Shown: positions 1-18,155 of the stretch, one piece after another
Position numbering within the stretch: the first letter of the stretch is position 1
Layout: every line of letters begins with the position of its first letter
DNA from: Elusimicrobia bacterium RIFOXYA2_FULL_50_26
GTDB lineage: Bacteria > Elusimicrobiota > Endomicrobiia > Endomicrobiales > XYA2-FULL-47-53
Assembly (NCBI GenBank): GCA_001800355.1
Contig: MGVF01000098.1
Location: forward strand, 1 to 35,662
Direction of reading: 5' to 3'
Length of the DNA stretch: 35,662 bases
Program-made: the position numbers and the translations under genes
Notes under the pieces: model-generated
The model's database searches: none
What the model was told of the DNA's origin: nothing
The model's input: the letters and a program-made list of their open reading frames with translations, nothing else

Positions 1-80
1 TTACGAAAATTTTAAAAAATCCGCCACCCGCGCGCCAAAAGAAACCGCCCGTGCCAAAAACGTCATACTGTTTACTAACT

Positions 81-187
81 GATGTTACGCAAGAAATGCC
101 AAGACTGCTGTCATTGCGAGCGAAGCGAAGCAATCTCGCTGTTTCGTATTAAAAAGACTAGATTGCTTCGCTTCGCTCGCAATGACA
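81..187. repeat. Palindromic repeat, family 2 (copy R1), with perfect 28-bp inverted arms
   Basis: tgtcattgcgagcgaagcgaagcaatct (109-136) is the exact reverse complement of agattgcttcgcttcgctcgcaatgaca (160-187), with a 23-nt loop. The left extension gatgttacgcaagaaatgcc (81-) recurs inverted at ~28450-28472. Confidence 0.9.
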
Positions 188-272
188 CTCCATTGACGTA
201 TAAGGCCGGATCGTTTTGGGAACGATCCCTGCAAAAGTCAATATTGCACTTACTGAAAAGGGAGAACATTAA

Positions 273-1010
273 ATGATTTATTTTCTGCTGCCGGCTTACA
301 ATGAGGAAAATGACCTGCCGCGACTTTTAGAGGAGTTTATCTCGGTGCATTTTTCATTCCCGTACCATATTATTATAGTCAACGACGGCTCAACCGATAA
401 AACACCGGCGATAATCGAGGAATATAAAAACAAGTTGTCGCTTTCTGCCGTGCATCACGACAAGAACCGGGGGCTTGGCAAGGCCTTAAGCACGGGGTTT
501 TCGGAGATACTGGCGCGCATAAAGGATTCCGATATTCTAATTACAACCGATTCCGACGGCACTCATCCTCTCGATACGGTTTACGCCATTATAAATAAAA
601 TAAAAACCGGCGCGGACGTCGTGGTGGCGTCACGTTTTGTTTCCGGCGGACAGGAAAACGGCGTTAATCTTTTCAGGCGGCTTTTAAGCCATGTCGCAAG
701 TTCAGGCCTCGGCATTCTCTGGCCGGTTGAAAATATTCGCGACTATTCATCCGGATTTCGCGGATATTCATATGCCATGATTACAAGGCTTCATGCCATG
801 TTCGGGGAAAAGTTGGTCGAGGAAAGCGGCTTTTCGTCAACCCTGGAATTGCTTCTGAAAGCGAGCCTTGCGGGCGGAAAATTCGACGAGGTGCCGCTGA
901 AACTCAGATACGACAACAAAAAAGGCGCAAGCAAAATGAAGGTAACAAGAACCATACTCGCCTACTTCAAACTAATCGTACGCTTGAAGAGGTTAAAACC
1001 CGCAAAATGA
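273..1010 (+). CDS. Family 2 glycosyltransferase (polyprenol-phosphate glycosyltransferase-like)
   Basis: N-terminal LLPAYNEENDLPRLLEEF, VNDGSTDKT and a DSDGTHP motif. Confidence 0.85.
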   Translation: MIYFLLPAYNEENDLPRLLEEFISVHFSFPYHIIIVNDGSTDKTPAIIEEYKNKLSLSAVHHDKNRGLGKALSTGFSEILARIKDSDILITTDSDGTHPLDTVYAIINKIKTGADVVVASRFVSGGQENGVNLFRRLLSHVASSGLGILWPVENIRDYSSGFRGYSYAMITRLHAMFGEKLVEESGFSSTLELLLKASLAGGKFDEVPLKLRYDNKKGASKMKVTRTILAYFKLIVRLKRLKPAK

Positions 1011-2122
1011 CTTCATACAGGATAGCGCACATTTATTCATCCCGCACATCCGGCGGCGCGGAGAAGGTTATGCTGGATCTTGCTTCCGGGCTTGAACGGC
1101 AGGGGCACCGGAACGTTATTGCCGCGCCGCCTGACAGTTTTCTGTTCGCGCAGGCCGGCGCCATGGGGCTTGCGCGCCGCGCTTTAGTCATTCGCGGGTC
1201 GTTCGACCCTGTCGGCATTGCGCGGCTTTTGTCAATAGTTGTAAGTGAGCGCATTGATATTATACACGCCCATCAGGGCAAGGTTTTCTGGCCGTGCATA
1301 TTCATGAAAGTTCTGTCCCTGTTCCGGTTAAACTTAAAGGTAGTATTTCACCGTCATGCGCAACTGCCTCATCGTTTTTACAGCCGCCTGCATTACCGGC
1401 TCGCGGATAAAGTGATAGCAATTTCCAGGGTAGTTGCCGAAGGGCTTGAAAAAAGGGAAAAAGTGCCGCATTCGAAAATCGAGGTTGTTTATAACGGTAT
1501 AGATTTACAACGGTTTAGCCCGGGCGTAAGCGCGGACGGCATACGCGCGCGCTACAATCTCGCTTCTTACCCTGTGGTAGGCACGGTAGCCGCGATGAAC
1601 CCGCCCAAAGGCAAAGGCCAGCAGTATCTTATCGAGGCGGCGCAACTTATTTCCAGGCAGTATCCCGATACCCGTTACCTTATAGTCGGCGACGGCCCTT
1701 TGCGCGCGCGCCTTGAGCAGATGGCCGGGCAGACGCCGCTTGCTGATAAAATCATCTTCACCGGCCACACGGAAAAAGTCGAACAGTTCATCGCCGCCAT
1801 GGACATCGTTTGCCTGCTTTCGTGGGATACGGAAGGTTTCGGCCAGGTTCTTGTCGAGGCGCAGGCGATGGGCAAACCGGTGATAGGCACTAATGTGGGC
1901 GGCATACCCGAAACTTTTTCAAATAACGAGTCAGGGCTTCTTGTCCCGCCCGAAGACGCGCCGGCGCTGGCCGTGGAAATATGCCGGCTGCTCGGGGATA
2001 ACGGCCTGCGCGCCCGCATGGGCAACAATGGTTTTGAGCGTGCGCATAAATATTTCAGCATTGACTCAATGGTAAAAGCCGTAAATAAAATATATGACGA
2101 GGCGATAAATGAGCGAACGTAA
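1007..2122 (+). CDS. Family 4 glycosyltransferase (GT-B)
   Basis: SSRTSGGAEKVMLDLASGL N-terminus; C-terminal EGFGQVLVEAQAMGKPVIGTNVGGIPE typical of GT4. 4-nt overlap with the previous CDS. Confidence 0.88.
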   Translation: MTSYRIAHIYSSRTSGGAEKVMLDLASGLERQGHRNVIAAPPDSFLFAQAGAMGLARRALVIRGSFDPVGIARLLSIVVSERIDIIHAHQGKVFWPCIFMKVLSLFRLNLKVVFHRHAQLPHRFYSRLHYRLADKVIAISRVVAEGLEKREKVPHSKIEVVYNGIDLQRFSPGVSADGIRARYNLASYPVVGTVAAMNPPKGKGQQYLIEAAQLISRQYPDTRYLIVGDGPLRARLEQMAGQTPLADKIIFTGHTEKVEQFIAAMDIVCLLSWDTEGFGQVLVEAQAMGKPVIGTNVGGIPETFSNNESGLLVPPEDAPALAVEICRLLGDNGLRARMGNNGFERAHKYFSIDSMVKAVNKIYDEAINERT

Positions 2123-2885
2123 AGTTTCCGTGTACATTATTACATTTAACGAGGAAAAGAAAATCAGGGCATGTCTTGAAAGCGTAACCTGGGCTGACGA
2201 GATCGTGGTGCTGGATTCATTCAGCACCGACAAAACGGTTGAGATCTGCCGGCAGTTCACCGACAAAATCTACCAGCATGAGTTCAACGGGTTCGGCGAG
2301 CTCAGGAACACCGCATTGTCCCACGTTACCAATGACTGGGTGTTAAGCATAGACTCCGACGAACGCGCCACGCCGGAGTTGCGCGACGAGATCCGCGCCA
2401 GATTGTCCGGCGACGGGCCGGATGCCGACGCCTACCTTGTGCCGCGCAAAAGCTATTTTCTAAACCACCTGGTTAAACATTGCGGATGGTACCCGGATTA
2501 CCGCCAGCCGCAGTTTTTTAACAGGCAAAAAATGAAGTACACGTTGCAAAAAGTGCATGAGACATATATTCTCGACGGTAAACTCTCGCGTCTCAACGGC
2601 CATGCTTTGCAGTTCCCGTTTTTATCCATGGACCAGTTCTTAAAGAAAATGGACCGTTATTCAGCCTTGCGGGCCGGGGAAATGTTTGCGGACGGCAAAC
2701 GCTTTAGAATCCATCACCTGCTGGTTAACCCCGCCGCCATGTTTTTCAGAATGTATGTGGCAAAGCTCGGATTCCTGGACGGCAAAGTCGGGCTTATACT
2801 CTCTCTTCTCTACGGCTATTACACCATGATCAAATACATAAAACTATGGGAACTAGTGGACGTTACCACTCCGAAAGAAGGCTGA
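2109..2885 (+). CDS. Family 2 glycosyltransferase, WaaE/KdtX-like LPS core type
   Basis: SVYIITFNEEKKIRACLESVTWADEIVVLDSFSTDKT...SIDSDERATPEL, typical of WaaE-like GT2. Confidence 0.85.
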   Translation: MSERKVSVYIITFNEEKKIRACLESVTWADEIVVLDSFSTDKTVEICRQFTDKIYQHEFNGFGELRNTALSHVTNDWVLSIDSDERATPELRDEIRARLSGDGPDADAYLVPRKSYFLNHLVKHCGWYPDYRQPQFFNRQKMKYTLQKVHETYILDGKLSRLNGHALQFPFLSMDQFLKKMDRYSALRAGEMFADGKRFRIHHLLVNPAAMFFRMYVAKLGFLDGKVGLILSLLYGYYTMIKYIKLWELVDVTTPKEG

Positions 2886-2888
2886 GAT

Positions 2889-4094
2889 TTGTTTAACCTT
2901 AATAATATTTTCATCAGTTTGAGGTCATTGCGAGCGCAGCGAAGCAATCTCGACGTTGCTTCTGATGAAAAGCGAGATTGCCGCGCCCTTTGGGCTCGCA
3001 ATAACGACGACAACTTTAAAACGCTAACGAGACACATTTTCATAAGCGTAACATTGCTTCCGTTGTCGTTTCTTTACGGCGTGGGAACACGCCTTCACAA
3101 GATGTTTTCAAAGCCGAAGGCCTTGCCGCGTCCGGTTATAAGCGTTGGCAACCTGACGTGGGGCGGGACGGGGAAAACACCGGTGGTAATTTCGCTTGCA
3201 CAGTTTCTTGAACGCAATAATATACAAGCCTGCATACTTTCCAGGGGCTACCTCAGGAAAAAGCGCGCAAGGAAACCACTGGTAGTCAGCGACGGAAAAA
3301 ACATCATCGCAACGCCTTTTGACGCGGGCGACGAACCGGCGTTGATCGCGCGAAGCGTGCCGGGCGCTATCGTAATGTCCGGCGCAGACAGGTTTTCAGC
3401 CGGCATGGCTGCCGCAGAAAACTTTAACCCCGGCATTTTCATACTTGACGACGGCTTCCAACACTGGGAATTGCGCCGTAATTTTGATATAATCTGTGTT
3501 AATGCGGGCAACCCGTTCGGCAACGGACGTCTTATACCGGCAGGCATTTTAAGGGAGCCTGTTTCCGCCTTGCGCCGTGCGCAGGCAATCGTAATAACTA
3601 ATGCCGATACGGTTGAAGCAGGTGCGTTGGCCGCCCTGAAACAAACGATCCGGCGTCAAACCGCCGTCCCGCTGACTGCAACGCGATATGCTCTTACTTC
3701 TTTAGCACAGCTTACCGACAACACCCCTATGAACGTTTCAGATATAATACCCCAACCGGTAACAGCCCTCTCCGCGATAGCCGATAATAACCGCTTTACG
3801 GCCACTCTTAAGAACCATGGTTTCATCGTGGAGCGGCATTTAGCCTTCCGTGATCATCACTGGTTTACATCCCGTGAACTTAATACGCTTCTAACCGCTG
3901 CCGCCAACAAACCGATAGTTACGACGGAGAAAGATGCCGTCCGCCTTGCGCCGCTTCTTGAAGGCCTTGCGCCGGAGAAGACGCGACATTTTTATGCGGC
4001 AAAAATCAGGCTTGAATTCATGCCCGGAGAACCAACGTGGGAAAACATCCTGCAAAACGCCCTGCCGTCTTTATTGACAGGGACGGCACGCTAA
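2889..4094 (+). CDS. lpxK: Tetraacyldisaccharide 4'-kinase with a repeat-encoded N-terminal insertion
   Basis: LLPLSFLYG and PVISVGNLTWGGTGKTPVV (Walker A of LpxK), DDGFQHWEL. TTG start 2889. Residues ~9-51 are encoded by repeat copy R2. Confidence 0.9.
   Translation: MFNLNNIFISLRSLRAQRSNLDVASDEKRDCRALWARNNDDNFKTLTRHIFISVTLLPLSFLYGVGTRLHKMFSKPKALPRPVISVGNLTWGGTGKTPVVISLAQFLERNNIQACILSRGYLRKKRARKPLVVSDGKNIIATPFDAGDEPALIARSVPGAIVMSGADRFSAGMAAAENFNPGIFILDDGFQHWELRRNFDIICVNAGNPFGNGRLIPAGILREPVSALRRAQAIVITNADTVEAGALAALKQTIRRQTAVPLTATRYALTSLAQLTDNTPMNVSDIIPQPVTALSAIADNNRFTATLKNHGFIVERHLAFRDHHWFTSRELNTLLTAAANKPIVTTEKDAVRLAPLLEGLAPEKTRHFYAAKIRLEFMPGEPTWENILQNALPSLLTGTAR
2915..3035 (+). mobile_element. 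MITE-like element family 1, copy R2 (121 bp, forward, left end shortened)
   Basis: cagtttgaggtcattgcgagcgcagcg...ctcgcaataacgacgacaactttaaaacgctaacgagacac, flanked by perfect 8-bp direct repeats ATTTTCAT (2907-2914, 3036-3043). Confidence 0.9.
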
Positions 4095-4603
4095 TCCGCG
4101 AAAAGAACTACCTGAGTAAAATCAGGGACGTGCGCCTTATTGCCGGCGCTGTCGAGGCGCTTAAGCTGCTGCGCCGGGCAGGCTATGCGCTCATAATGGT
4201 AACAAACCAGTCCGGTATAGGCCGCGGTTATTTCACCGAGGAGCAACTGCGCAAGGTGCATCTCCATTTATCGGCGCTTTTGAAAAAGAAAGGTGCAGCC
4301 CTTGATGCGATATATTACTGCCCGCACCACCCGGATGAGGATTGCAAGTGCCGCAAGCCCGGGCTTGGAATGGTAAATGCGGCAAAAAAAGAATTTAACC
4401 TGGATCTGCGCCGTTCGTATGCCGTCGGCGATCATACCAACGATTTCCTGCTGGGACAGAACATGGGCGGGAAAGGCATATTCGTGCTTACCGGACACGG
4501 CAGGCGGGAAAGAAAGAAGATTGAAAGCAGCAAAGGAGAACTGTCGCCGGACAAAACATTCAGGAATTTGTTCGCAGCCGCGAAGTGGATTGCCCGGCAA
4601 TAA
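4037..4603 (+). CDS. gmhB: D-glycero-D-manno-heptose 1,7-bisphosphate phosphatase (HAD family)
   Basis: FIDRDGTLIREKNYL, TNQSGIGRGYF, CPHHPDEDCKCRKPGLGM (GmhB zinc loop). GTG start, 58-nt overlap with lpxK. Confidence 0.9.
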   Translation: MGKHPAKRPAVFIDRDGTLIREKNYLSKIRDVRLIAGAVEALKLLRRAGYALIMVTNQSGIGRGYFTEEQLRKVHLHLSALLKKKGAALDAIYYCPHHPDEDCKCRKPGLGMVNAAKKEFNLDLRRSYAVGDHTNDFLLGQNMGGKGIFVLTGHGRRERKKIESSKGELSPDKTFRNLFAAAKWIARQ

Positions 4604-4605
4604 TC

Positions 4606-5433
4606 ATGTGTAAAAAAAATAGTATTCATCGAAAGATAGCGGCAGCGGCCTGTTTGTGTTTTTATCTCATTACGCCGTTGCCGTCCAATGAAACGGACCC
4701 GGCCGTGCCCGCAAACGTGCCTGAGATCGTTGCGCCTGCATTTGCATGGCTACAGGAGACAAACACCGCGTTTTCACCCGGGGAAGTATTGCAATTTAAC
4801 GTTCGTTGGCAGTTTCTCACCGTCGGCTCGGCCTCGATGGAGATTGACAGTATTGTTGATTTTAACGGCAGGAAAGCATACCACATAGTAACAAAAGCAT
4901 CCTCGGCGCCGTTTTTTGACACCTTTTTCAAGGTGCGCGACACCAACGAGGCATGGATGGATACCGAGAGTTTAAGCTCGCTTAAATTCTCAAGTCACAT
5001 ATCGGAAGGCAACTATAAAAAAGACGAAACCATAATAATTGACCAGCAAAACCGGAAATTTACGATAACCGAATCGGGGAAAACCGGAAACACGCCGGCA
5101 TGGGTCAAAGACGTGCTGTCATCCATGTATTACCTGCGCACACGCGACCTTGCCGTTGGAAAAGAATATTCCATTGACGCGCATTCGGGCGACAAATCCT
5201 GGCCGCTGATAGTTAACGTTACGGGACGCGAAAAAGTAAAAACAGCGGCCGGCAATTTTACCTGCTGGGTCGTGGAACCCGCATTGCGCGATGGAGCCGG
5301 CATTTTCAAGGCAGACGGCAAACTCAAGGTCTGGCTGACCTGCGACGAAAAAAAACTTCCCGTACTGATGCGCTCAAAAGTAAAGGTAGGCGCCATAGAA
5401 GCCCGCCTCGTAGAAGTTAAGTTTAACGACTAA
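4606..5433 (+). CDS. DUF3108-like periplasmic protein
   Basis: Signal-like N-terminus followed by GEVLQFNVRWQFLTVGSASMEI...FFKVRDTNEAWMD, with the organisation of DUF3108 proteins. Start taken at ATG 4606 rather than 4585. Confidence 0.65.
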   Translation: MCKKNSIHRKIAAAACLCFYLITPLPSNETDPAVPANVPEIVAPAFAWLQETNTAFSPGEVLQFNVRWQFLTVGSASMEIDSIVDFNGRKAYHIVTKASSAPFFDTFFKVRDTNEAWMDTESLSSLKFSSHISEGNYKKDETIIIDQQNRKFTITESGKTGNTPAWVKDVLSSMYYLRTRDLAVGKEYSIDAHSGDKSWPLIVNVTGREKVKTAAGNFTCWVVEPALRDGAGIFKADGKLKVWLTCDEKKLPVLMRSKVKVGAIEARLVEVKFND

Positions 5434-5470
5434 CGGCTTATGTTTATCAAGCAGTTATATAGTCATTTAG

Positions 5471-5573
5471 CGGTTTCAATCTGCGGCCTGCAACTTCGGA
5501 AAATGTGGGCTCACGTAGCTACCGCTACGCCGCGCCCACCTTTTCCTGCGTTTCGGCTCGCATATTGAAACCG
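5471..5573. repeat. Imperfect palindromic repeat, third type
   Basis: Ends cggtttcaat (5471-5480) / attgaaaccg (5564-5573) are perfect inverted repeats; inner gtgggc...gcccac and gtagctaccgctac core symmetry. Confidence 0.8.
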
Positions 5574-5596
5574 AACAGCCTTATTGTTCGAGTTTC

Positions 5597-5727
5597 GTGT
5601 CTCTTTGGCGTTTTGAAGTTGTCGTCGTCATTGCGAGCCCAAAGGGCGCGGCAATTCGCTTTTCATCAAAAGCAACGTGGAGATTGCTTCGCTCTCGCTC
5701 GCAATGACCTCAAACGACTAAAGAGAA
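5597..5727 (-). mobile_element. MITE-like element family 1, copy R3 (reverse, degraded right end)
   Basis: gtgtctctttggcgttttgaagttgtcgtcgtcattgcgagcccaaagggcgcggcaattcgc...ctcgcaatgacctcaaacgactaaagaga; no clear target duplication seen. Confidence 0.8.
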
Positions 5728-5762
5728 CTGCGTAACACCAGTTATTAATTTGGAGAAAAATT

Positions 5763-6707
5763 ATGAAGAGCAGGATTGACCTTTCCAGGATTACCACCGT
5801 TTCACTGCATAAGAGGCCGAGCAAGGTTAAAACGGATCATTTTGCGAAAACGTTAAAATCGCCTGTAAAGTTTAACGATTTTCTTGATTCGATACCCGGC
5901 ATTCTTATTGGAAATAGTTTCAAAAATTTGGTAAAATCAGTCCTTGCTGCGAGGAAGAAAAATAAACCCGTCATTTTGACGTTTGGCGCGCACCTGCTTA
6001 AATGCGGGCTTGGGCCTCTTGTCATAGATCTTCTGGAACGCGGGTTTATTACGGCTATTGCCACAAACGGCGCCTCAAGCATCCATGACTTTGAACTCGC
6101 CTGCACGGGACGCACATCCGAAGATGTTTCAGCGCGGCTAAAGGACGGCTCTTTCGGCATGACGCGCGAAACCGGCGAATTCCTAAACAACGCCGCCGCC
6201 CGCGCGGCGAGCGAAAACCGCGGCCTCGGCGAAACCATAGGGCGCTGCATAGAAGAAGCCAGACTGCCGCACAGAAATTTAAGTGTTTTTGCGGCTGCGC
6301 ACCGGCTTAAAGTTCCTTTAACGGTCCACGTAGCCATAGGAACTGACATCATTTACCAGCATCCTCAATGCGACGGCGCGGCGTGGGGAAAAGCCAGTTA
6401 TAATGATTTTCTAAAGTTCGCGGATTCAGTTTCCCGCATGGGTTCCGGCGGGGCGCTGCTTAATTTCGGAAGCGCCGTTATACTGCCCGAGGTTTTCCTT
6501 AAAGCGCTTACCGTTGCGCGCAACCTGGGTTATAAGGTTTTTAATTTTACGACCGCAAATTTCGACATGATCCGCCAGTACCGCCCGCACCAGAATATAG
6601 TAAGCAGGCCGACGGAAGGCAACGGGCGCGGTTACGATTTTACAGGCCATCACGAAATAATGTTTCCGCTGTTATATGCATCGCTGATTGACGGAGTGGA
6701 AAAATGA
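5763..6707 (+). CDS. Deoxyhypusine synthase-like family protein (function unknown in bacteria)
   Basis: ATNGASSIHDFELA (NAD-binding region), VHVAIGTDIIYQHP, GSGGALLNFGSAVILPEVF, GHHEIMFPLLYASLIDG resemble the DHS fold layout. RBS-like ggagaa upstream of the ATG. Confidence 0.65.
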   Translation: MKSRIDLSRITTVSLHKRPSKVKTDHFAKTLKSPVKFNDFLDSIPGILIGNSFKNLVKSVLAARKKNKPVILTFGAHLLKCGLGPLVIDLLERGFITAIATNGASSIHDFELACTGRTSEDVSARLKDGSFGMTRETGEFLNNAAARAASENRGLGETIGRCIEEARLPHRNLSVFAAAHRLKVPLTVHVAIGTDIIYQHPQCDGAAWGKASYNDFLKFADSVSRMGSGGALLNFGSAVILPEVFLKALTVARNLGYKVFNFTTANFDMIRQYRPHQNIVSRPTEGNGRGYDFTGHHEIMFPLLYASLIDGVEK

Positions 6708-7686
6708 AAAAGCTTACCGACCTGATACCGAAGTTTACGCGCCACAAAATCATTGTTCTGGGCGACCTTATGATAGATAAGTTCGTCTGGGGAAAAGTTT
6801 CGCGCATATCGCCGGAAGCCCCCGTTCCGGTGGTGGAAATAACCAGGGAATCCTACGCCTTTGGCGGCGCCGGCAACGTGGCGAACAACCTGCTCGGGCT
6901 TGGCGCCGAGGTGGCGCTGGTAGGCGTTGTCGGAAATGATCTCTCCGGTGATAAATTGTTTAAGGAGTTTCTTGAAAAAAAGATTGACGTTCGCGGGATA
7001 GTAAGGGACGACGAACGCCCCACAATAGTAAAAACCAGGATAATAGCCTCCCACCAGCAGATCGTGCGCGTTGACAAGGAAATTAAGGGTGATTTTTCGC
7101 CGCGCATCATAGCCAATATCATTCAAACGCTTGAGCGCATTATTCCCGAGGCGCACGCGATAATAATTTCAGATTACGGCAAAGGCGTCGTAAACAAGCC
7201 GGTGCTGACCAGGGCTATACAGCTTGCAAATCAGCACAAGATACCGGTTACGGTTGACCCTAAAATAGAGCATTTCCTTCGCTACCGCAAGGTTAGCTGT
7301 ATCACTCCGAATATGGCCGAAGCCATAGCAGGTATGCGTTGTCGTGACATAGCGGGCGAAAGTGAAATATATGATCTCGGCAAAAAAATACTTAAGCGGC
7401 TGCAATCCGATTCCGTGCTTATCACCCGTGGTGAAAAGGGCATGACCCTGTTTGAACCCGGCAATAAAATTACGCATATTCCGACAAGAGCCAAGGAAGT
7501 TTACGACGTTACGGGCGCGGGAGATACCGTAATTTCCACTTTTACGCTGGCTCTTGCGGCAAAAGCAAGTTTTGTCGAAGCGGCCGAGATATCCAATTTT
7601 GCCGCCGGGGTGGTAGTGGGCAAACTTGGCACTGCCACGGTTTCCCCGGAAGAACTGCGCAACGCGATATTGAATTATAAAGCTTG

Positions 7687-7687
<1 letters not shown>
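6704..7687 (+). CDS. rfaE1: D-glycero-beta-D-manno-heptose-7-phosphate kinase (PfkB family, HldE domain I type)
   Basis: VLGDLMIDKFVWGKVSRISPEAPVPVVEI, GGAGNVANNLLGLGAEV, DVTGAGDTVISTFTLALA. Confidence 0.92.
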
Positions 7688-10863
<3,176 letters not shown>

Positions 10864-10865
10864 GG

Positions 10866-10999
10866 GTGTCTCTTTAGCGTTTAGAAGTTGTCGTCGTCAT
10901 TGCGAGCCCGAAGGGCGCGGCAATCTCGCTTTTCATCAGAAGCAACGTCAAGATTGCTTCGCTCTCGCTCGCAATGACCTCAAACTGCTAAAGAGACAC
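10866..10999 (-). mobile_element. MITE-like element family 1, copy R4 (134 bp, reverse)
   Basis: Terminal inverted repeats gtgtctctttagc / gctaaagagacac; perfect 8-bp direct repeats AAATAAGG (10858-10865, 11000-11007). Confidence 0.95.
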
Positions 11000-11025
11000 A
11001 AATAAGGATAATATTGGAGAAAAGC

Positions 11026-11268
11026 ATGAAATGCCCGAAATGTCAGATTGATAACAAGGAAGGAATAAAGTTCTGCCGCAAATGCGGGACGGACATGACA
11101 CCCGCGCCATTATGGAAGCCTTCCTGGAAATGGCACGCGCAAACGCTGCTTGTCATTTACGCATCGCTCATCGTATTGTTTTTTGCGCTTAACCACGTCC
11201 TGAAACCATACTTGCGCCAGATTCCGAAGGACATCACCCCGTGGCTGAAAGAGATGCCGAAACAATGA
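11026..11268 (+). CDS. Small zinc-ribbon single-TM protein
   Basis: MKCPKCQIDNKEGIKFCRKCGTD (CxxC...CxxC) then hydrophobic TLLVIYASLIVLFFAL. ggag upstream of the 11026 ATG; ATGA overlap with kdsC. Confidence 0.75.
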   Translation: MKCPKCQIDNKEGIKFCRKCGTDMTPAPLWKPSWKWHAQTLLVIYASLIVLFFALNHVLKPYLRQIPKDITPWLKEMPKQ

Positions 11269-11795
11269 AAAAAACTATTATAAGCAAAGCGAAAAAAGTC
11301 AGGTTGATTGCGACCGACGTTGACGGTGTTCTCACCGACGGCAGCATAATTATCCGGGAATCCGGCGAGGAAGTAAAAACATGGAACGTGAAGGACGGGC
11401 TTGGGCTTTACCTTGCCAAACGCTCCGGCGACGGAATAAAATTTGCATGGATCACGGGGCGCAAGTCGCGCCAGGTAAAAGAGCGGGCAAAGGACATGGG
11501 CATTGACATCCTGGTGCAGGACTGCATGAAAAAAAGGGATGCGATGGAAACTATCATAAAAAAACTTAAAATTACGCCGGAAGAAGTTATCTACATCGGC
11601 GATGACCTTGTTGACATACCGGTTTTCCGCTACGTGGGGCTGTCGGCCTGTCCGAAAGACGCGCCCATGGAAGTCAAACGCGAAGCCACGTTCATAGCCT
11701 CATGCGAAGGCGGCAAAGGCATCCTGCGCGAAGTGGTGGAACTGGTGTTAAAATCCCGCGGCCTATGGGAAAAAGCGACTCGTGGATACATTTAA
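11265..11795 (+). CDS. kdsC: 3-deoxy-D-manno-octulosonate 8-phosphate phosphatase (HAD)
   Basis: LIATDVDGVLTDGSIII, WITGRKSRQVKERAKDMGI, YIGDDLVDIPVFRYVGLSACPKDA. Confidence 0.92.
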   Translation: MKKTIISKAKKVRLIATDVDGVLTDGSIIIRESGEEVKTWNVKDGLGLYLAKRSGDGIKFAWITGRKSRQVKERAKDMGIDILVQDCMKKRDAMETIIKKLKITPEEVIYIGDDLVDIPVFRYVGLSACPKDAPMEVKREATFIASCEGGKGILREVVELVLKSRGLWEKATRGYI

Positions 11796-12831
11796 TTTAA
11801 GGTGTCTCTTTAGCAGTTTGAGGTCATTGCGAGCGCAGCGAAGCAATCTCGACGTTGCTTCTGATGAAAAACGAGATTGCCGCGCCCTTCGGGCTCGCAA
11901 TGACGACAACAACTTCAAAACGCTAAAGAGACACAATTTAAGAAAAGTATTGCGCAGAGGTTACTATCTCCTTGCCGCATTGCTGTCGAAATTTATATTG
12001 CTGATACCGTTGAGGATAGCGGTAACGGCCGGGGGGCTTCTGGGGTTGGCGGCATACTATGTTACCGGTGCCTCGCGCCGGCGCGCAATACTAAACCTTT
12101 CCGCGGCATTTCCAGGGAAAAACGAGGTTGAAATTCGCGCAATGGCGCGCTCGGTTTTCTTAAACCAGGGAAAAAATTTATTCGAATTGTTTTCGTTTCC
12201 CAAACTAAGCAATGATAAAATGCTTTCGTTGTGCAGGATTTCAAACCGCGAAATCATGACGGAAGCGTTTAAGAAAGGCAAGGGCGTTCTGATAGCAAGC
12301 GCGCATTGCGCCAACTGGGAAATGATGGGCGCGACGCTTTCGCTGTCCGGTTTTCCGATAAACGTCATCGCGCGGCGCATTTATATAGAAGAATTGAACA
12401 ATATGCTGGTGAACCTGCGCCTCTCAAAGGGCGTCCGCGTCATTTTGCGTTCAGGCAAAGAATCGGCGCGGGAAATACTGCGCAGCCTGCGCCATAACGA
12501 GGCCATCGGCATTCTCATAGACCAGGACACCGCCGTGCCGGGAGTGTTCGTTGATTTCTTCGGAAAAAAAGCATGGACGCCGTCGGGACTCGCCACGCTT
12601 GCCATGCGCACCGGCGCAAGCGTGGTGCTTGCGCTCGACGTGCGCCTTCCGGATGACAGCCACGAAGTTGTTTTGTCCGGCCCTTTCGATTTTGAGCGCA
12701 CGGGAAATGACGAAGCCGACATAGCCAGACACGTACAACTTATTACACAAAAAATCGAGGATCACATCCGCGTTTATCCCGGCCAGTGGGTATGGATGCA
12801 CGACCGCTGGAAAACCAGAGAAAATGAATAA
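11782..12831 (+). CDS. lpxL: Lipid A biosynthesis lauroyl/myristoyl acyltransferase with a repeat-encoded N-terminal insertion
   Basis: SAHCANWEMMGATLSLSG (HX4D/E-type motif), GILIDQDTAVPGVFVDFFGKKAWTPSGLATLAMRTGA. GTG start 11782 overlaps kdsC; codons ~7-51 from repeat R5. Alternative TTG start at 11950. Confidence 0.85.
   Translation: MDTFNLRCLFSSLRSLRAQRSNLDVASDEKRDCRALRARNDDNNFKTLKRHNLRKVLRRGYYLLAALLSKFILLIPLRIAVTAGGLLGLAAYYVTGASRRRAILNLSAAFPGKNEVEIRAMARSVFLNQGKNLFELFSFPKLSNDKMLSLCRISNREIMTEAFKKGKGVLIASAHCANWEMMGATLSLSGFPINVIARRIYIEELNNMLVNLRLSKGVRVILRSGKESAREILRSLRHNEAIGILIDQDTAVPGVFVDFFGKKAWTPSGLATLAMRTGASVVLALDVRLPDDSHEVVLSGPFDFERTGNDEADIARHVQLITQKIEDHIRVYPGQWVWMHDRWKTRENE
11802..11934 (+). 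mobile_element. MITE-like element family 1, copy R5 (133 bp, forward)
   Basis: gtgtctctttagcagtttgagg...acgctaaagagacac; perfect 8-bp direct repeats AATTTAAG (11794-11801, 11935-11942). Confidence 0.95.
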
Positions 12832-13360
12832 CTTAACGTTAAACCTAATCCTATTGCTATCCGCGCTGTTTTTTACCTCGTGTGCCAAGAGGGAAGAAAT
12901 TACTAACGATAACCCGGCCGTTCCTGAGCAGGCCATTGAGCAATTTACGGTTATGGAAACGCGCCACGGCAAGCCAAGCTGGACGCTTGACGCGGCCTCA
13001 GCCCAGATCATCGAAACTGAAAAAATCGCCATCGTCCAGTCTCCGAAAATCATGTTTTACCAGGAAGGCAAATACGTTTCGACCCTGGTTGCCGAGCGTG
13101 GCAGGATAAACACCGAAACATACGACATATGGGGCGAAGAAAAATGTATAGTAACAACCGCAAAAGGCGAGAGGCTTGAAACGAGAAATCTTCATTACCG
13201 CTCCGATATACGAAAAATTATTACGGACGAAAAGGTAAAACTGGTGCGGCCGCAGGAGATAATTTACGGCCAGGGCATGGAAGCGACGCCTGATCTTGAA
13301 AGCATTATTATAAAGAAGCAGCGGGTAGAACTAAAGGAAGGCGATGAAGTTAAAAAATAG
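12824..13360 (+). CDS. lptC: LPS export periplasmic protein LptC-like (possible lipoprotein)
   Basis: LSALFFTSCAKREE N-terminus; ETRHGKPSWTLDAASAQI, WGEEKCIVTTAKGERLETRNLHYRSDI (LptC/YrbK-like). Immediately upstream of lptA-lptB. Confidence 0.8.
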   Translation: MNNLTLNLILLLSALFFTSCAKREEITNDNPAVPEQAIEQFTVMETRHGKPSWTLDAASAQIIETEKIAIVQSPKIMFYQEGKYVSTLVAERGRINTETYDIWGEEKCIVTTAKGERLETRNLHYRSDIRKIITDEKVKLVRPQEIIYGQGMEATPDLESIIIKKQRVELKEGDEVKK

Positions 13361-14147
13361 GTGTCTCTTTAGCAGTTTGAGGTCATTGCGAGCGCAGCGA
13401 AGCAATCTCGACGTTGCTTCTGACGAAAAGCGAGATTGCCGCGCCCTTCGGGCTCGCAATGACGACGAGAACCTCGGAATGCTAAAGAAACACAAAAATA
13501 TACTGATATTGCTGCCGGCGGTTTTTTTTGTTTGCGCTGCCGCCACTGTGCGACAGCCTAAAGCCGTTATAACTGGCGACGAGATGGAGATAATTAAAAA
13601 CGGATCGGCTGTCATTTTCAATGGAAACGCGATGGTAAAACGCGGCGACAGCTCTTTGAAGGCCGAAAGAATAGTGCATGACAAGGCAAACAATACCGTT
13701 GAAGCTACGGGTAACATAATCTTCGACACGGTTACCGAAAAAAACGAGCCGCTTCATGCCACGGGGCAAAAAGCCAGGTACTCCGTTACGCTTGGCGAGG
13801 GCGAATTAAGCCAGGGCAGGCCGCACGTTACCTGGCACGTGAGGGAATCAACGACGCCCGTGCAGATATTCGCCGATGTAATACGCTTCGACAAGCAACG
13901 CGAGGAAATAACCGGCGAAGGCGGCGTAGAGGTAATATCTTCGTCCGCATGCGCCTACGCGCCCCGCGTCATGTTCATGCAGCGCAGCAATGAAGCATTT
14001 CTTACCGGCTCCCCTCAGCCAAAGATAGTTTACCACAGCAGCAACAGGGGTGAATACAGCGCAGACTCCATAACGATATTCATGAAAGATCATTCTGCGG
14101 AACTGAAAGGGAACGTTCACGGGATATTATATGATTTTAAAAAGTAA
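13344..14147 (+). CDS. lptA: LptA/OstA-like LPS transport protein with repeat-encoded N-terminus
   Basis: [50 protein letters not shown] (OstA repeat). In-frame ATG at 13479 inside the repeat end gives a clean signal peptide [22 protein letters not shown]. Confidence 0.85.
13361..13493 (+). mobile_element. MITE-like element family 1, copy R6 (133 bp, forward)
   Basis: gtgtctctttagcagtttgagg...atgctaaagaaacac; 8-bp flanks AAAAATAG (13353-13360) / AAAAATAT (13494-13501), 7/8 identical. Confidence 0.9.
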
Positions 14148-14850
14148 CGGCCTGCAAAAAATGTACCGCAAAAGGGCGGTCGTCAACGGCATAAGCATCG
14201 AGGTGCGCCAGGGCGAGATTGTCGGACTTCTCGGGCCCAACGGCGCAGGGAAAACAACCACGTTCTACATGACGGTGGGGCTTATCTCTCCCGACGGCGG
14301 GCAGGTGCTTATTGATGATACTGACGTTACAACCATGCCAATGTACCAGCGTGCGCGCATGGGTGTAGGCTACCTGCCGCAGGAACCTTCAATTTTCAGG
14401 CGGATGACGGTAGAGGAAAACCTCCAGGCAATACTTGAAACCCTGCCGATTTCAAAGCAGGAACGCAAGGCAAAGGCCGAGACGCTGTTGTCCGACCTCG
14501 GGCTTTCGCACCTGCGGGGACAGCTTGCCGTAACACTTTCCGGCGGCGAAAAAAGGCGCTGCGAGATAGCGCGCGCCCTTGTTACCGATCCAAAGTTCCT
14601 GCTCCTGGATGAACCGTTTGTAGGCATTGATCCTATAACGGTTGCCGATATCCAGCAGATTATTGCCCGCCTGAAGGCACGCGGGCTGGGAATACTTATA
14701 ACGGATCATAATGTGCGTGAAACCCTGCAAATAATTGACCGCGCATACATCATACATGAAGGCAAAATACTGCTTGAAGGCAACGCAAGCGACCTGCTGG
14801 AAAGCGCCGAGGCGCGCCGTGTATACCTTGGCGAAAACTTCAAAATGTAA
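14131..14850 (+). CDS. lptB: LPS export ABC transporter ATP-binding protein
   Basis: [64 protein letters not shown]. Confidence 0.96.
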
Positions 14851-14857
14851 AAATTTG

Positions 14858-15041
14858 ATATCTTTTTAGCATTTTGAAGCAACATGCTGTCATTGCGAGG
14901 AACGAAGTGACGAAGCAATCTCGTCTTTATCATCGTCAAACAACAAGATTGCTTCGCTTCGCTCGCAATGACATTCCTTATAAGATATAAATTTTCAGGT
15001 GAATTGATCTCGACGACAACTTCTGAATGCTAAAGAGACAC
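14858..15041 (+). mobile_element. Mosaic element R7: family 1 outer ends with a family 2-like hairpin core (184 bp)
   Basis: Left atatctttttagcattttgaag, core tgtcattgcgaggaacgaag...cgcttcgctcgcaatgaca, right gacgacaacttctgaatgctaaagagacac; perfect 8-bp direct repeats AAAATTTG (14850-14857, 15042-15049). Confidence 0.88.
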
Positions 15042-15121
15042 AAAATTTGATAATTTGTTCATAATTTGATATATTTCTGATTAACCTGTCTGACTCTTCA
15101 ACACTAATGGAGGATAGATAC

Positions 15122-15676
15122 ATGCAAGTAAATATCACCGCAAGACATCTGGAACTTACCCCTGCGCTGGCAAACTATGTTTATAAAAAGATTGAAAAAT
15201 GCGAGCATTTTTCTGATCACCTTGTATGGGCGCAGGTTATTTTATCCGTGGAAAAGTACCGGCAGGTGGCTGAACTCGTTATTCATGCAAGCAAAATAAC
15301 ATTCCGTTCCAAGGAAGAGTCAACCGACATGTACGCCGCGATTGACCTTGCCGTTGATAAAATGGACAAGCAGTTGCGAAAACACAAGGAAATAGTAAAG
15401 ACAAACAGGAAATCAAAAAGCGCCGCTTCTTCCCGAAAACGCCTCAAATCATCCACACAACCCGCAACGTTCACCGAGCCTGAAACAGGCAGACATCTTA
15501 TAAGCGAAGTAAAACGTTTTAGCATAAAGCCGTCTTCCGTAGATGAAGCCATTGACGAAATGGAACTGCTGGGACATAGTTTCTTCATGTTTCTTAATGC
15601 GGAAACGTCACAGTTAAATGTCGTGTATAAACGCGATAACGGTTCCCTCGGGCTTATTGAACCGGAGATGGAATAA
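15122..15676 (+). CDS. hpf: Ribosome hibernation promoting factor, long form
   Basis: MQVNITARHLELTPALANYVYKKIEK N-domain plus C-terminal KRFSIKPSSVDEAIDEMELLGHSFFMFLNAETSQLNVVYKRDNGSLGLIEP. ggagg at 15109-15113. Confidence 0.92.
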   Translation: MQVNITARHLELTPALANYVYKKIEKCEHFSDHLVWAQVILSVEKYRQVAELVIHASKITFRSKEESTDMYAAIDLAVDKMDKQLRKHKEIVKTNRKSKSAASSRKRLKSSTQPATFTEPETGRHLISEVKRFSIKPSSVDEAIDEMELLGHSFFMFLNAETSQLNVVYKRDNGSLGLIEPEME

Positions 15677-15720
15677 CGTATTGTGTCCGGCCGGCAAGCG
15701 GCGGACGAGGGAGAAAACGG

Positions 15721-16179
15721 ATGAAAATTATGGATTTTCTTTGTCCTGAGACCATAACTATAGACCTGAAGGCACAGGACAAAAAATCGGCCATAAACGA
15801 ACTGGCCGAAATGCTTCACAAAACAAAAAAAACCAAAAAGGTCGCCGAGGTTGTGGAAGCTGTTCTTGAGCGCGAAAAACTGGGGTCAACCGGCATAGGC
15901 CAGGGCGTAGCCATACCTCACGGCAAAACCAACGCCGTCTCCGAGCAGATCGGCGTACTCGGTATATCCCAAAAAGGCGTTGATTTTCATTCGCTTGACG
16001 GTGAACCGGTATACCTTATATTCCTTCTTGTAGGCCCCACCGAGATCGCCGGCCAGCATTTAAAAGCGCTGGCAAGGATCTCACGGTTGTTCAAAGACAA
16101 ATTCTTCCGACAGGCGCTCCGCGACGCCAAATCCACCGAGGAAATAGTAAAAATCATTCAGCAGGAAGATGCGTATTAG
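15721..16179 (+). CDS. ptsN: PTS EIIA-Ntr/fructose-type (PtsN-like)
   Basis: GSTGIGQGVAIPHGKTNAV (phospho-His), LVGPTEIAGQHLKALARISRLFKD. Confidence 0.9.
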   Translation: MKIMDFLCPETITIDLKAQDKKSAINELAEMLHKTKKTKKVAEVVEAVLEREKLGSTGIGQGVAIPHGKTNAVSEQIGVLGISQKGVDFHSLDGEPVYLIFLLVGPTEIAGQHLKALARISRLFKDKFFRQALRDAKSTEEIVKIIQQEDAY

Positions 16180-16197
16180 CGTGTTATCTCGCCTTAT

Positions 16198-17133
16198 ATG
16201 CCAGAAATAACCGTAGGAACATTTTTACAGGAAAAAAGTGAAGATTTAAAGCTGGAGCTTATCACCGGCGTTGAGGGGTTGCCGCGCCTTATTAAAGTAT
16301 CGGAAATTAACCGGCCAGGCCTTGCTTTTACCGGATACATGGAACATTTTCCGGCCGAGCGTATCCAGATAATAGGGCTTTCAGAATACTCGTATTTAAG
16401 CTCGCTTGCCCCGGAAATACTTACCGAAACGCTTGAAAGAATTCTGTCCTATCCGTCGCTCCCCTGCGTGATACTTGCACGCGAATTCGATCCGCTGCCG
16501 GAAATGCTGCGGCTTCACCAGAAATTTAAAATACCGCTGCTGCGCACGGGGATGAAACCTTCGCCTCTCGCCGGAGAGCTGATCTTTTACCTTGAAGACA
16601 AGATGGCCGCATCGACGTCCCTGCACGGAGTGCTGGTAAGCGTATACGGGCTGGGGGTTCTTCTTATAGGAAACGCCGGCATAGGAAAATCCGAGTGCGC
16701 GATGGAGCTGGTAAAGCGCGGGCACATGCTGGTAGCCGACGACGTGGTTGAGGTGCGCCAGCGTTCCGGCGGCATTCTTATCGGCCAGGGCGAGGAGATA
16801 GTCCGCCATCATATGGAAGTGCGCGGCCTTGGTATTATAGACGTTCGCAGCCTGTTCGGCATAGGATTCATACTTGACCAGTCGAAGATCGAGCTTGTTA
16901 TCCGACTTGAAGACTGGGACGCCAACCGCGAATACGAGAGGGTGGGGTTGGAAGAGCATTATACCACTATCCTCGACGTTAAGGTTCCTGAAGTAATTTT
17001 GCCGGTGCGCCCGGGAAGAAACCTGGCCGTTCTCGTTGAGATTGCAAGCCTCAACCAGCGCCTGAAAAACCGCGGCCACTACACGGCGCAACAGCTAAAC
17101 CAGCGCCTTATACAAATAATGTCGCAAAGATAA
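16198..17133 (+). CDS. hprK: HPr kinase/phosphorylase
   Basis: GNAGIGKSECAMELVKRGHMLVADDVVEV (Walker A), EVRGLGIIDVRSLFG (HprK signature). Confidence 0.97.
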   Translation: MPEITVGTFLQEKSEDLKLELITGVEGLPRLIKVSEINRPGLAFTGYMEHFPAERIQIIGLSEYSYLSSLAPEILTETLERILSYPSLPCVILAREFDPLPEMLRLHQKFKIPLLRTGMKPSPLAGELIFYLEDKMAASTSLHGVLVSVYGLGVLLIGNAGIGKSECAMELVKRGHMLVADDVVEVRQRSGGILIGQGEEIVRHHMEVRGLGIIDVRSLFGIGFILDQSKIELVIRLEDWDANREYERVGLEEHYTTILDVKVPEVILPVRPGRNLAVLVEIASLNQRLKNRGHYTAQQLNQRLIQIMSQR

Positions 17134-17136
17134 ATC

Positions 17137-17259
17137 GCAGTTTGAGGTCATTGCGAGCGAGAGCGAAGCAATCTCGGCGTTGCTTCTGATGAAAAGCGAG
17201 ATTGCCGCGCCCTTTGGTCTCGCAATGACGACGACAACTTCAAAATGCTAAAGAGGCAC
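17137..17259 (+). mobile_element. MITE-like element family 1, copy R8 (123 bp, forward, left end shortened)
   Basis: gcagtttgaggtcattgcgagcgagagcgaagcaatctcgg...caaaatgctaaagaggcac; perfect 8-bp direct repeats GATAAATC (17129-17136, 17260-17267). Confidence 0.93.
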
Positions 17260-17288
17260 GATAAATCTGATTAACGGGGAATTATTAT

Positions 17289-18155
17289 ATGCAGTTTTAC
17301 ATTGTTACAGGGTTATCGGGGGCGGGCAAAAGCCAGGCGTTGAAAATCCTGGAGGATATGGGTTTTTTCTGCGTGGACAATCTCCCCGTTGCGCTGGTGC
17401 CGCGTTTTGCCGACCTTTGCAGGGCGCAAGGCGCCAAATTTTCGCGCGTTGCGCTGGGCATAGATATTCGCGCCGGCAAACCATCCCTGGATTCACTCGA
17501 CGGCGTTCTTTCTGAAATCAAAAAAAAGGGAATAAAATACCGTATAATTTTTTTCACGGCCAACGACTCGACACTGTTGCAGCGTTATTCCGAAACCCGC
17601 CGCCGTCACCCGCTGGGACGACGCATAGTGGACGGAATTCACAAAGAAAGAAAGTTGATGGAAAAGGTGCTTTCCATTGCAGACCAGGTTATAGACACGT
17701 CGCACCTTACACTGGCGGAATTAAAGGAAATACTTGCGCGTGTAATGGGAATATCATACATACGCAAGATAATGATCTCCACGCTTTCATTCGGATATAA
17801 ATACGGCATTCCCACGGACGCGGATCTTGTCATAGACGTCCGCTTCCTGCCAAACCCGAACTATGTTCCGTCCTTGCGCTCTAAAACAGGGCAGGACGTG
17901 GCGGTAAAAAAATACGTGCAGCGGCAGAAACCGGCCAGGGAGTTTTTTCGCCGTTTCCTGGATCTGATAAATTTCCTTATTCCCCGTTACGTGCGCGAAG
18001 GAAAAAGTTACCTGACTATCGCCGTCGGATGCACCGGCGGACGCCACCGTTCCGTCGTCGTGGCGGAACATATCGCCCAGTTCCTCAGGAAAAGCCGGTA
18101 CCCGGTTAAGATTTACCACCGTGATATCGAGCGGGGCGTGGAAGCGTACCGCTGA
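17289..18155 (+). CDS. rapZ: RNase adapter RapZ / YvcJ family nucleotide-binding protein
   Basis: VTGLSGAGKSQALKILEDMGFFCVDNLPVAL, IAVGCTGGRHRSVVVAEHIA. Confidence 0.96.
   Translation: MQFYIVTGLSGAGKSQALKILEDMGFFCVDNLPVALVPRFADLCRAQGAKFSRVALGIDIRAGKPSLDSLDGVLSEIKKKGIKYRIIFFTANDSTLLQRYSETRRRHPLGRRIVDGIHKERKLMEKVLSIADQVIDTSHLTLAELKEILARVMGISYIRKIMISTLSFGYKYGIPTDADLVIDVRFLPNPNYVPSLRSKTGQDVAVKKYVQRQKPAREFFRRFLDLINFLIPRYVREGKSYLTIAVGCTGGRHRSVVVAEHIAQFLRKSRYPVKIYHRDIERGVEAYR

What the first reader, a model, noticed from the sequence alone, without database searches (positions are those of the whole stretch)
2889..13560. One mobile element has inserted in-frame into the first codons of lpxK, lpxL and lptA
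Copies R2, R5 and R6 lie within the first ~10 codons of three different LPS genes, all in the same orientation. The consensus forward strand has only one open frame: gtg tct ctt TAG and gtc tct tta gca gtt TGA close early, while tgt ctc ttt agc agt ttg stays open. All three genes use that frame. Element plus 8-bp duplication is 129, 141 and 141 bp, all multiples of 3. Deleting element plus one duplication reconstructs plausible native N-termini: LpxK MFNLNNIFISVTLLPLSFLYG, LpxL MDTFNLRKVLRRGYYLLAALLSK, Lpt[21 protein letters not shown]. The inserted peptide is ~[40 protein letters not shown]. This resembles the reported Rickettsia palindromic elements that invade coding sequences, but here with transposition footprints and clustering in one pathway.
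Basis: partly seen in the sequence, partly recalled or inferred. Interest (0 to 1): 0.88.

Follow-up and report, generated by a model that had tools for sequence, protein, structure and literature searches.

The report
Mobile repeats inside gene-start codons
A small jumping DNA repeat, present in over a hundred copies in an uncultured Elusimicrobia genome, has landed just after the start codons of several cell-envelope genes in a way that keeps the genes readable, probably giving each protein a 43-47 amino-acid leader; this resembles what is known from Rickettsia, and the genome-wide pattern suggests why it is tolerated.

Summary
Copies at 2915-3035, 11802-11934 and 13361-13493 have 8-bp duplications, and element plus duplication is 129, 141 and 141 bp. 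They lie after codons ~9, 7 and 6 of lpxK, lpxL and lptA. The element is a MITE-like palindrome (~134 bp) with at least 117 copies in this Elusimicrobiota draft genome; 68 of 114 examined copies have an 8-bp duplication with at most one mismatch.

Pathway clustering is not the explanation. Genome-wide, copies sit at gene junctions: 25 of 69 lie within about 10 nt of a stop codon, against 1.8% for random points. Where operon genes overlap or abut, that position is also the first codons of the next gene. I find three more good in-ORF cases outside LPS (M16 peptidase, fibronectin-type secreted protein, PMT_2 glycosyltransferase) and two weaker ones, in both orientations. All six good cases are frame-preserving and stop-free, although only about one third of other copies have a compatible length. 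All lie directly before a signal peptide or first membrane helix.

Best reading: an RPE-like MITE tolerated as a basic extension of the cytoplasmic n-region. Translation through the element is inferred, not shown; a downstream start remains possible, most clearly for lpxK. New member of a known kind.

The parts
2907..2914 (+). left target-site duplication of R2 (ATTTTCAT)
2915..3035 (+). element R2, 121 bp, left ~12 bp lost, in frame after about codon 9 of lpxK
3036..3043 (+). right target-site duplication of R2 (ATTTTCAT)
2889..4094 (+). lpxK ORF (TTG start, AAGG 7 nt upstream) containing R2
11794..11801 (+). left TSD of R5 (AATTTAAG), overlapping the end of the kdsC-like gene
11802..11934 (+). 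element R5, 133 bp, in frame after codon 6-7 of lpxL
11935..11942 (+). right TSD of R5 (AATTTAAG)
11782..12831 (+). lpxL-type acyltransferase ORF (GTG) containing R5
13353..13360 (+). left TSD of R6 (AAAAATAG), holding the stop codon of the lptC-like gene
13361..13493 (+). element R6, 133 bp, in frame after codon 5-6 of lptA; carries an in-frame ATG near its right end
13494..13501 (+). right TSD of R6 (AAAAATAT, one mismatch)
13344..14147 (+). lptA ORF (ATG, AAGGA 5 nt upstream) containing R6
10866..10999 (-). full-length 134-bp copy R4 just after the kdsA-like stop codon, TSD CCTTATTT
5597..5726 (-). intergenic copy R3, no clear TSD
17137..17259 (+). copy R8 just after the HprK-type gene, left end shortened, TSD GATAAATC

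Best explanation
A non-autonomous DNA transposon (MITE; 133-134 bp, 13-bp terminal inverted repeats GTGTCTCTTTAGC, 8-bp target duplications, strong hairpin) has spread to more than 100 sites in this genome (shown). Surviving copies sit at gene junctions, often over or next to a stop codon, so that the upstream gene stays intact (shown statistically). In tightly packed operons the same spot is the first codons of the next gene. There only copies of a minority, frame-neutral and stop-free length class are found; they add about 43-47 codons and are translated from the native start (inferred). The added peptide is basic (+5 or +9) and lies in front of a signal peptide or first membrane helix, i.e. 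in the cytoplasmic n-region, where it is tolerated and, in secreted proteins such as LptA, would be removed with the signal peptide (inferred).
For: TIRs, and TSDs in 68 of 114 copies. Six of six good in-ORF copies have (element+8) divisible by 3 against 20 of 63 others (Fisher p=0.002; 8/8 and p=2e-4 with two weaker cases). A random copy, strand and phase would be frame-preserving and stop-free with probability about 0.10. In the M16 peptidase and the fibronectin-type protein no downstream start leaves a basic n-region before the hydrophobic segment, whereas a GGAG/TTG start or an ATGA junction lies upstream. Orthologues lack the insert: LptA 25 residues to KAVITGD in both; LpxL MFRKLLRKIYYLL; M16 MKKLLPVIPAFF. 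N-terminal hydrophobic segment in 6/6 host proteins against 25-34% of genes. Junction bias: 25/69 near stops and 17/69 just upstream of starts against 1.8% and 1.9% of random points.
Against: No expression data. Possible downstream starts exist in lptA (ATG within the element), lpxK and lpxL (TTG) and the glycosyltransferase (GTG with AGGA). Six to eight cases is a small number and start sites are partly judged by eye. One cytosolic gene (L064) seems to have moved its start to the element edge. The hydrophobic-segment association was noticed before it was tested. No autonomous partner was found.
Confidence: 0.68

Rival explanations
1. Leader insertion with start-site shift: the elements separate the old start from the gene, and translation now begins inside or just after the element; the open frame through it is incidental.
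For: lptA has ATG CTA AAG AAA inside R6 giving a good signal peptide [22 protein letters not shown]; lpxK and lpxL have TTG codons after the element; LpxK orthologues start near that TTG. L064 is a likely real case. Many copies sit just upstream of intact starts.
Against: Does not predict that all in-ORF copies keep the frame (6/6 or 8/8, p=0.002 to 2e-4). Downstream starts mostly lack Shine-Dalgarno matches, and for the M16 and fibronectin-type proteins leave no basic n-region. The lpxL TTG would be 4 residues before YYL, against 7-9 in orthologues.
Confidence: 0.25
2. Pathway-specific adaptive insertion: the element was recruited to LPS genes to regulate or modify envelope biogenesis.
For: Three LPS genes in 10.7 kb carry in-frame copies; 7 copies in the window against 2.1 expected.
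Against: Equal cases outside LPS, in the other orientation too. The window was chosen because of the finding. Gene-junction placement and frame filtering explain it.
Confidence: 0.04
3. Assembly artefact at repeats.
For: A 138-contig draft; some copies lie at contig ends.
Against: Matching 8-bp duplications, and continuous genes on both sides; lpxK, lpxL and lptA occur in the same order on one G001 contig.
Confidence: 0.03

Closest known systems
Rickettsia palindromic elements (RPEs), as summarised in PMC10969869 (citing Ogata et al. 2000, 2002)
   Same: About 130-150 bp palindromic repeats, many copies, in-frame in unrelated genes, encoding a similar peptide at each site.
   Different: Here 8-bp target duplications are clear, only about 5-7% of examined copies are in ORFs (nearly half for three RPE families per the review), the in-ORF ones are N-terminal before signal or membrane segments, and the terminal 22-mer was not found in any of 84,980 species genomes scanned (exact match).
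MITEs of prokaryotes with in-frame fusions (ERIC, BOX, QMITE1, Anabaena MITEs; PMC10969869)
   Same: Short, non-coding for transposase, TIRs, TSDs, high copy, occasional ORF fusions.
   Different: New sequence family; transposase source unknown; systematic gene-junction position and length-class filtering documented here.
Widespread CATTGCGAGC...GCTCGCAATGAC palindromic repeat (core)
   Same: The element's core is this repeat, found in 28 of 150 genomes of the phylum.
   Different: Only in this genome did I see it enclosed by the GTGTCTCTTTAGC ends with TSDs.

Membership tests
MITE | terminal inverted repeats | tested here: met
   GTGTCTCTTTAGC/GCTAAAGAGACAC at both ends
MITE | target-site duplications | tested here: met
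   8 bp, at most one mismatch in 68 of 114 copies
MITE | short, no transposase gene, high copy number | tested here: met
   133-134 bp, 117 core copies
MITE | related autonomous element supplying the transposase | tested here: inconclusive
   none found by searching for the TIR without the MITE interior; draft genome about 92% complete
Rickettsia palindromic element (works like) | palindromic ~150 bp repeat | tested here: met
   133-nt copy folds at -62.8 kcal/mol, z = -7.2
Rickettsia palindromic element (works like) | in-frame within protein genes, giving a conserved peptide | tested here: met
   six good cases, but two peptide readings (one per strand) and a small share of copies
Rickettsia palindromic element (member of) | shared sequence and presence in Rickettsia | tested here: not met
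   terminal 22-mer absent from 84,980 species genomes (exact match only); host is Elusimicrobiota
Rickettsia palindromic element (works like) | inserted segment is translated | not testable with these tools
   needs proteomics or ribosome profiling

The most novel reading that the evidence does not exclude
Gene-junction MITEs act as a recurrent generator of N-terminal leader extensions, with n-regions of signal peptides and membrane anchors as a general safe harbour for in-frame transposon insertion in compact bacterial genomes; the element's two stop-free readings are basic, so it is effectively pre-adapted to this niche.
Probability: 0.3. Interest if true: 0.65.

Novelty: new member of a known kind. 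Interest (0 to 1): 0.47.

Why it matters
It gives a well-footprinted case, outside Rickettsiales, of a transposable element living inside essential envelope genes, and offers a concrete and testable reason why such insertions are tolerated: they fall at operon gene junctions, keep the frame, and add only to the disposable cytoplasmic end of signal or anchor sequences. It also warns annotators that the first ~45 residues of such proteins may be transposon-derived, or that the start is misplaced.

Tried and rejected
An exact double-TIR pattern in the own genome gave nothing, being too strict. Searches for an autonomous transposon with the same ends found only a second MITE type with a CTCTCCC core and lone TIR-like matches. 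An exact 22-mer scan of GTDB species found none. Copies at L079, L081, L089, L098, L074, L075, L084 and L112, which look in-ORF by stop-to-stop reading or in the empty site, were rejected because a proper start lies downstream of the element. The PAP2/PMT_2 'fusion' (L059) looked like an interdomain insertion; relatives mostly have two adjacent genes, so it was reclassified as an insertion after codon 3 of the glycosyltransferase. Rfam finds no known RNA family in window 1-18000. The Genome Research RPE paper was not in the library.

Full report
Identity of the genome. The window is contig 98 of a 2.01-Mb draft in 138 contigs. Its only same-family genome held, G001, has a 132,850-base contig that matches in length and position Elusimicrobia bacterium RIFOXYA2_FULL_47_53, and the same-order genome G007 matches an Endomicrobiales MAG, so the host is an Elusimicrobiota bacterium.

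Observation. Searches confirm the three copies and their duplications. R2 (2915-3035) has lost about 12 bp of the left end but keeps a perfect duplication; R5 and R6 are 133 bp. All three extend the ORFs of lpxK, lpxL and lptA (Pfam) at the N-terminus. The 133-bp form, one base shorter in the GCG(A/C)AGCG stretch, has an open reading on each strand.

Genome-wide survey. A 27-base core pattern has 117 matches (55 forward, 62 reverse; reversed control 0). I fetched 72 stretches around the listed copies and modelled the element: 114 copies, 68 with an 8-bp duplication of at most one mismatch, duplications about 70% A+T. No exact match to the terminal 22-mer exists in the 84,980 other species genomes, while the inner core is widespread in the phylum (28 of 150 genomes). 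The element therefore looks like a lineage-specific MITE that carries a common palindromic core.

Where copies sit. After removing each element and one duplication in silico and calling genes with a simple codon model, 25 of 69 insertion points fall within about 10 nt of a stop codon and 17 within 40 nt upstream of a start; random points give 1.8% and 1.9% (binomial p about 5e-26 and 1e-14). Relative to non-coding space alone the stop-codon excess is about threefold (my arithmetic), so survival explains much of it. In lptA the element starts directly behind the lptC-like stop codon; in lpxL the upstream stop codon starts 9 nt before the element; in the M16 peptidase and fibronectin-type gene the upstream stop overlaps the start codon (TTGA, ATGA) and starts 13 and 16 nt before the element. 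So at overlapping or abutting operon genes, a stop-codon insertion is automatically an early-codon insertion in the next gene.

In-ORF copies. Using reconstructed empty sites, start codons with Shine-Dalgarno checks and orthologues, I accept six: lpxK, lpxL, lptA, an M16 peptidase (L061), a fibronectin-type secreted protein (L053) and a PMT_2 glycosyltransferase (L059); families. Two more are possible: a prepilin-like gene (L069) and a ZnuA-like gene (L088), both with a good downstream ATG. Half of the six are in the opposite orientation to the LPS cases. Element plus 8 bp is divisible by 3 in 6/6 against 20/63 of others (p=0.002; with the two extra, 8/8 and p=2e-4). All are stop-free in the frame used; for a random copy, strand and phase, being frame-preserving and stop-free has probability about 0.10. 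This is the main evidence that the native start is still used and read through.

What follows the insert. Each of the six inserts lies between the start and the first hydrophobic segment. Only 25-34% of genes called here have such a segment in the first 45 residues (p about 3e-4 to 2e-3 for 6/6, post hoc). The peptides are basic (net +5 and +9), in keeping with a cytoplasmic n-region (general knowledge of signal peptides and the positive-inside rule). In LptA, M16 and the fibronectin-type protein the extension would leave with the signal peptide (inference).

LptA of G001 starts MKKFSAVFLVSAAFYAFSAAENTSEKAVITGD, 25 residues before KAVITGD, the same as the reconstructed MKLKN(R/I)[19 protein letters not shown]. 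LpxL orthologues start MFRKLLRKIYYLLALVFSK and the like, matching LRKVLRRGYYLLAALLSK with 7-9 residues before YY. LpxK orthologues start about 5 residues before PLS, between the two possible starts here, so lpxK is the weakest of the three.

Rival. Start-site shift remains open gene by gene: lptA has an ATG within R6, lpxK and lpxL have TTG codons behind the element, the glycosyltransferase a GTG with AGGA, and L064 is a probable true example. It does not explain the frame bias. The element RNA is a strong hairpin (-62.8 kcal/mol, z -7.2 for R5) which a translating ribosome would have to open.

Known context. A 2024 review states that in-frame fusions by MITEs are not unusual and that RPEs do so at unusually high frequency (PMC10969869). 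Literature searches for MITE insertions in signal peptides or palindromic repeats in Elusimicrobia gave nothing directly matching (open-licence papers only). I therefore call this a new member of a known kind, with the gene-junction and n-region pattern as the new and testable part.

Noticed in passing
window 14857-15045; also L116 near 2832: Composite copies: the same kind of outer ends (CTTTTTAGC / GCTAAAGAGACAC) enclose a different CATTGCGAG palindrome, so ends and cores are mixed between families.
   Followed up: partly
L084 5780-5913 (G000:C59) and L204 about 1745 (G000:C127): A second MITE type with the same terminal repeat but a CTCTCCC core, suggesting one transposase served several cores.
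   Followed up: partly
window 2915 and 17137; L092 1369, L102 803, L113 2524: Several copies keep a target duplication but lack about 12-16 bp of the left terminus, as if that end were preferentially lost after insertion.
   Followed up: no
L064 about 2564-2700 (G000:C29): A copy at the start of a cytosolic gene has a mutated end that supplies ATG AAT GTA CAT, a probable relocated start codon.
   Followed up: partly
L088, gene leader beyond the element copy at 2555-2687 (G000:C67): Behind the MITE, the ZnuA-like leader also contains a second repeat-like reading (TLGDRKEVRGRG), so two repeats may be stacked before one signal peptide.
   Followed up: no
window 1-35662: Seven copies of this element in 35.7 kb where 2.1 are expected from the genome average (Poisson p about 0.005, window not chosen at random).
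   Followed up: partly
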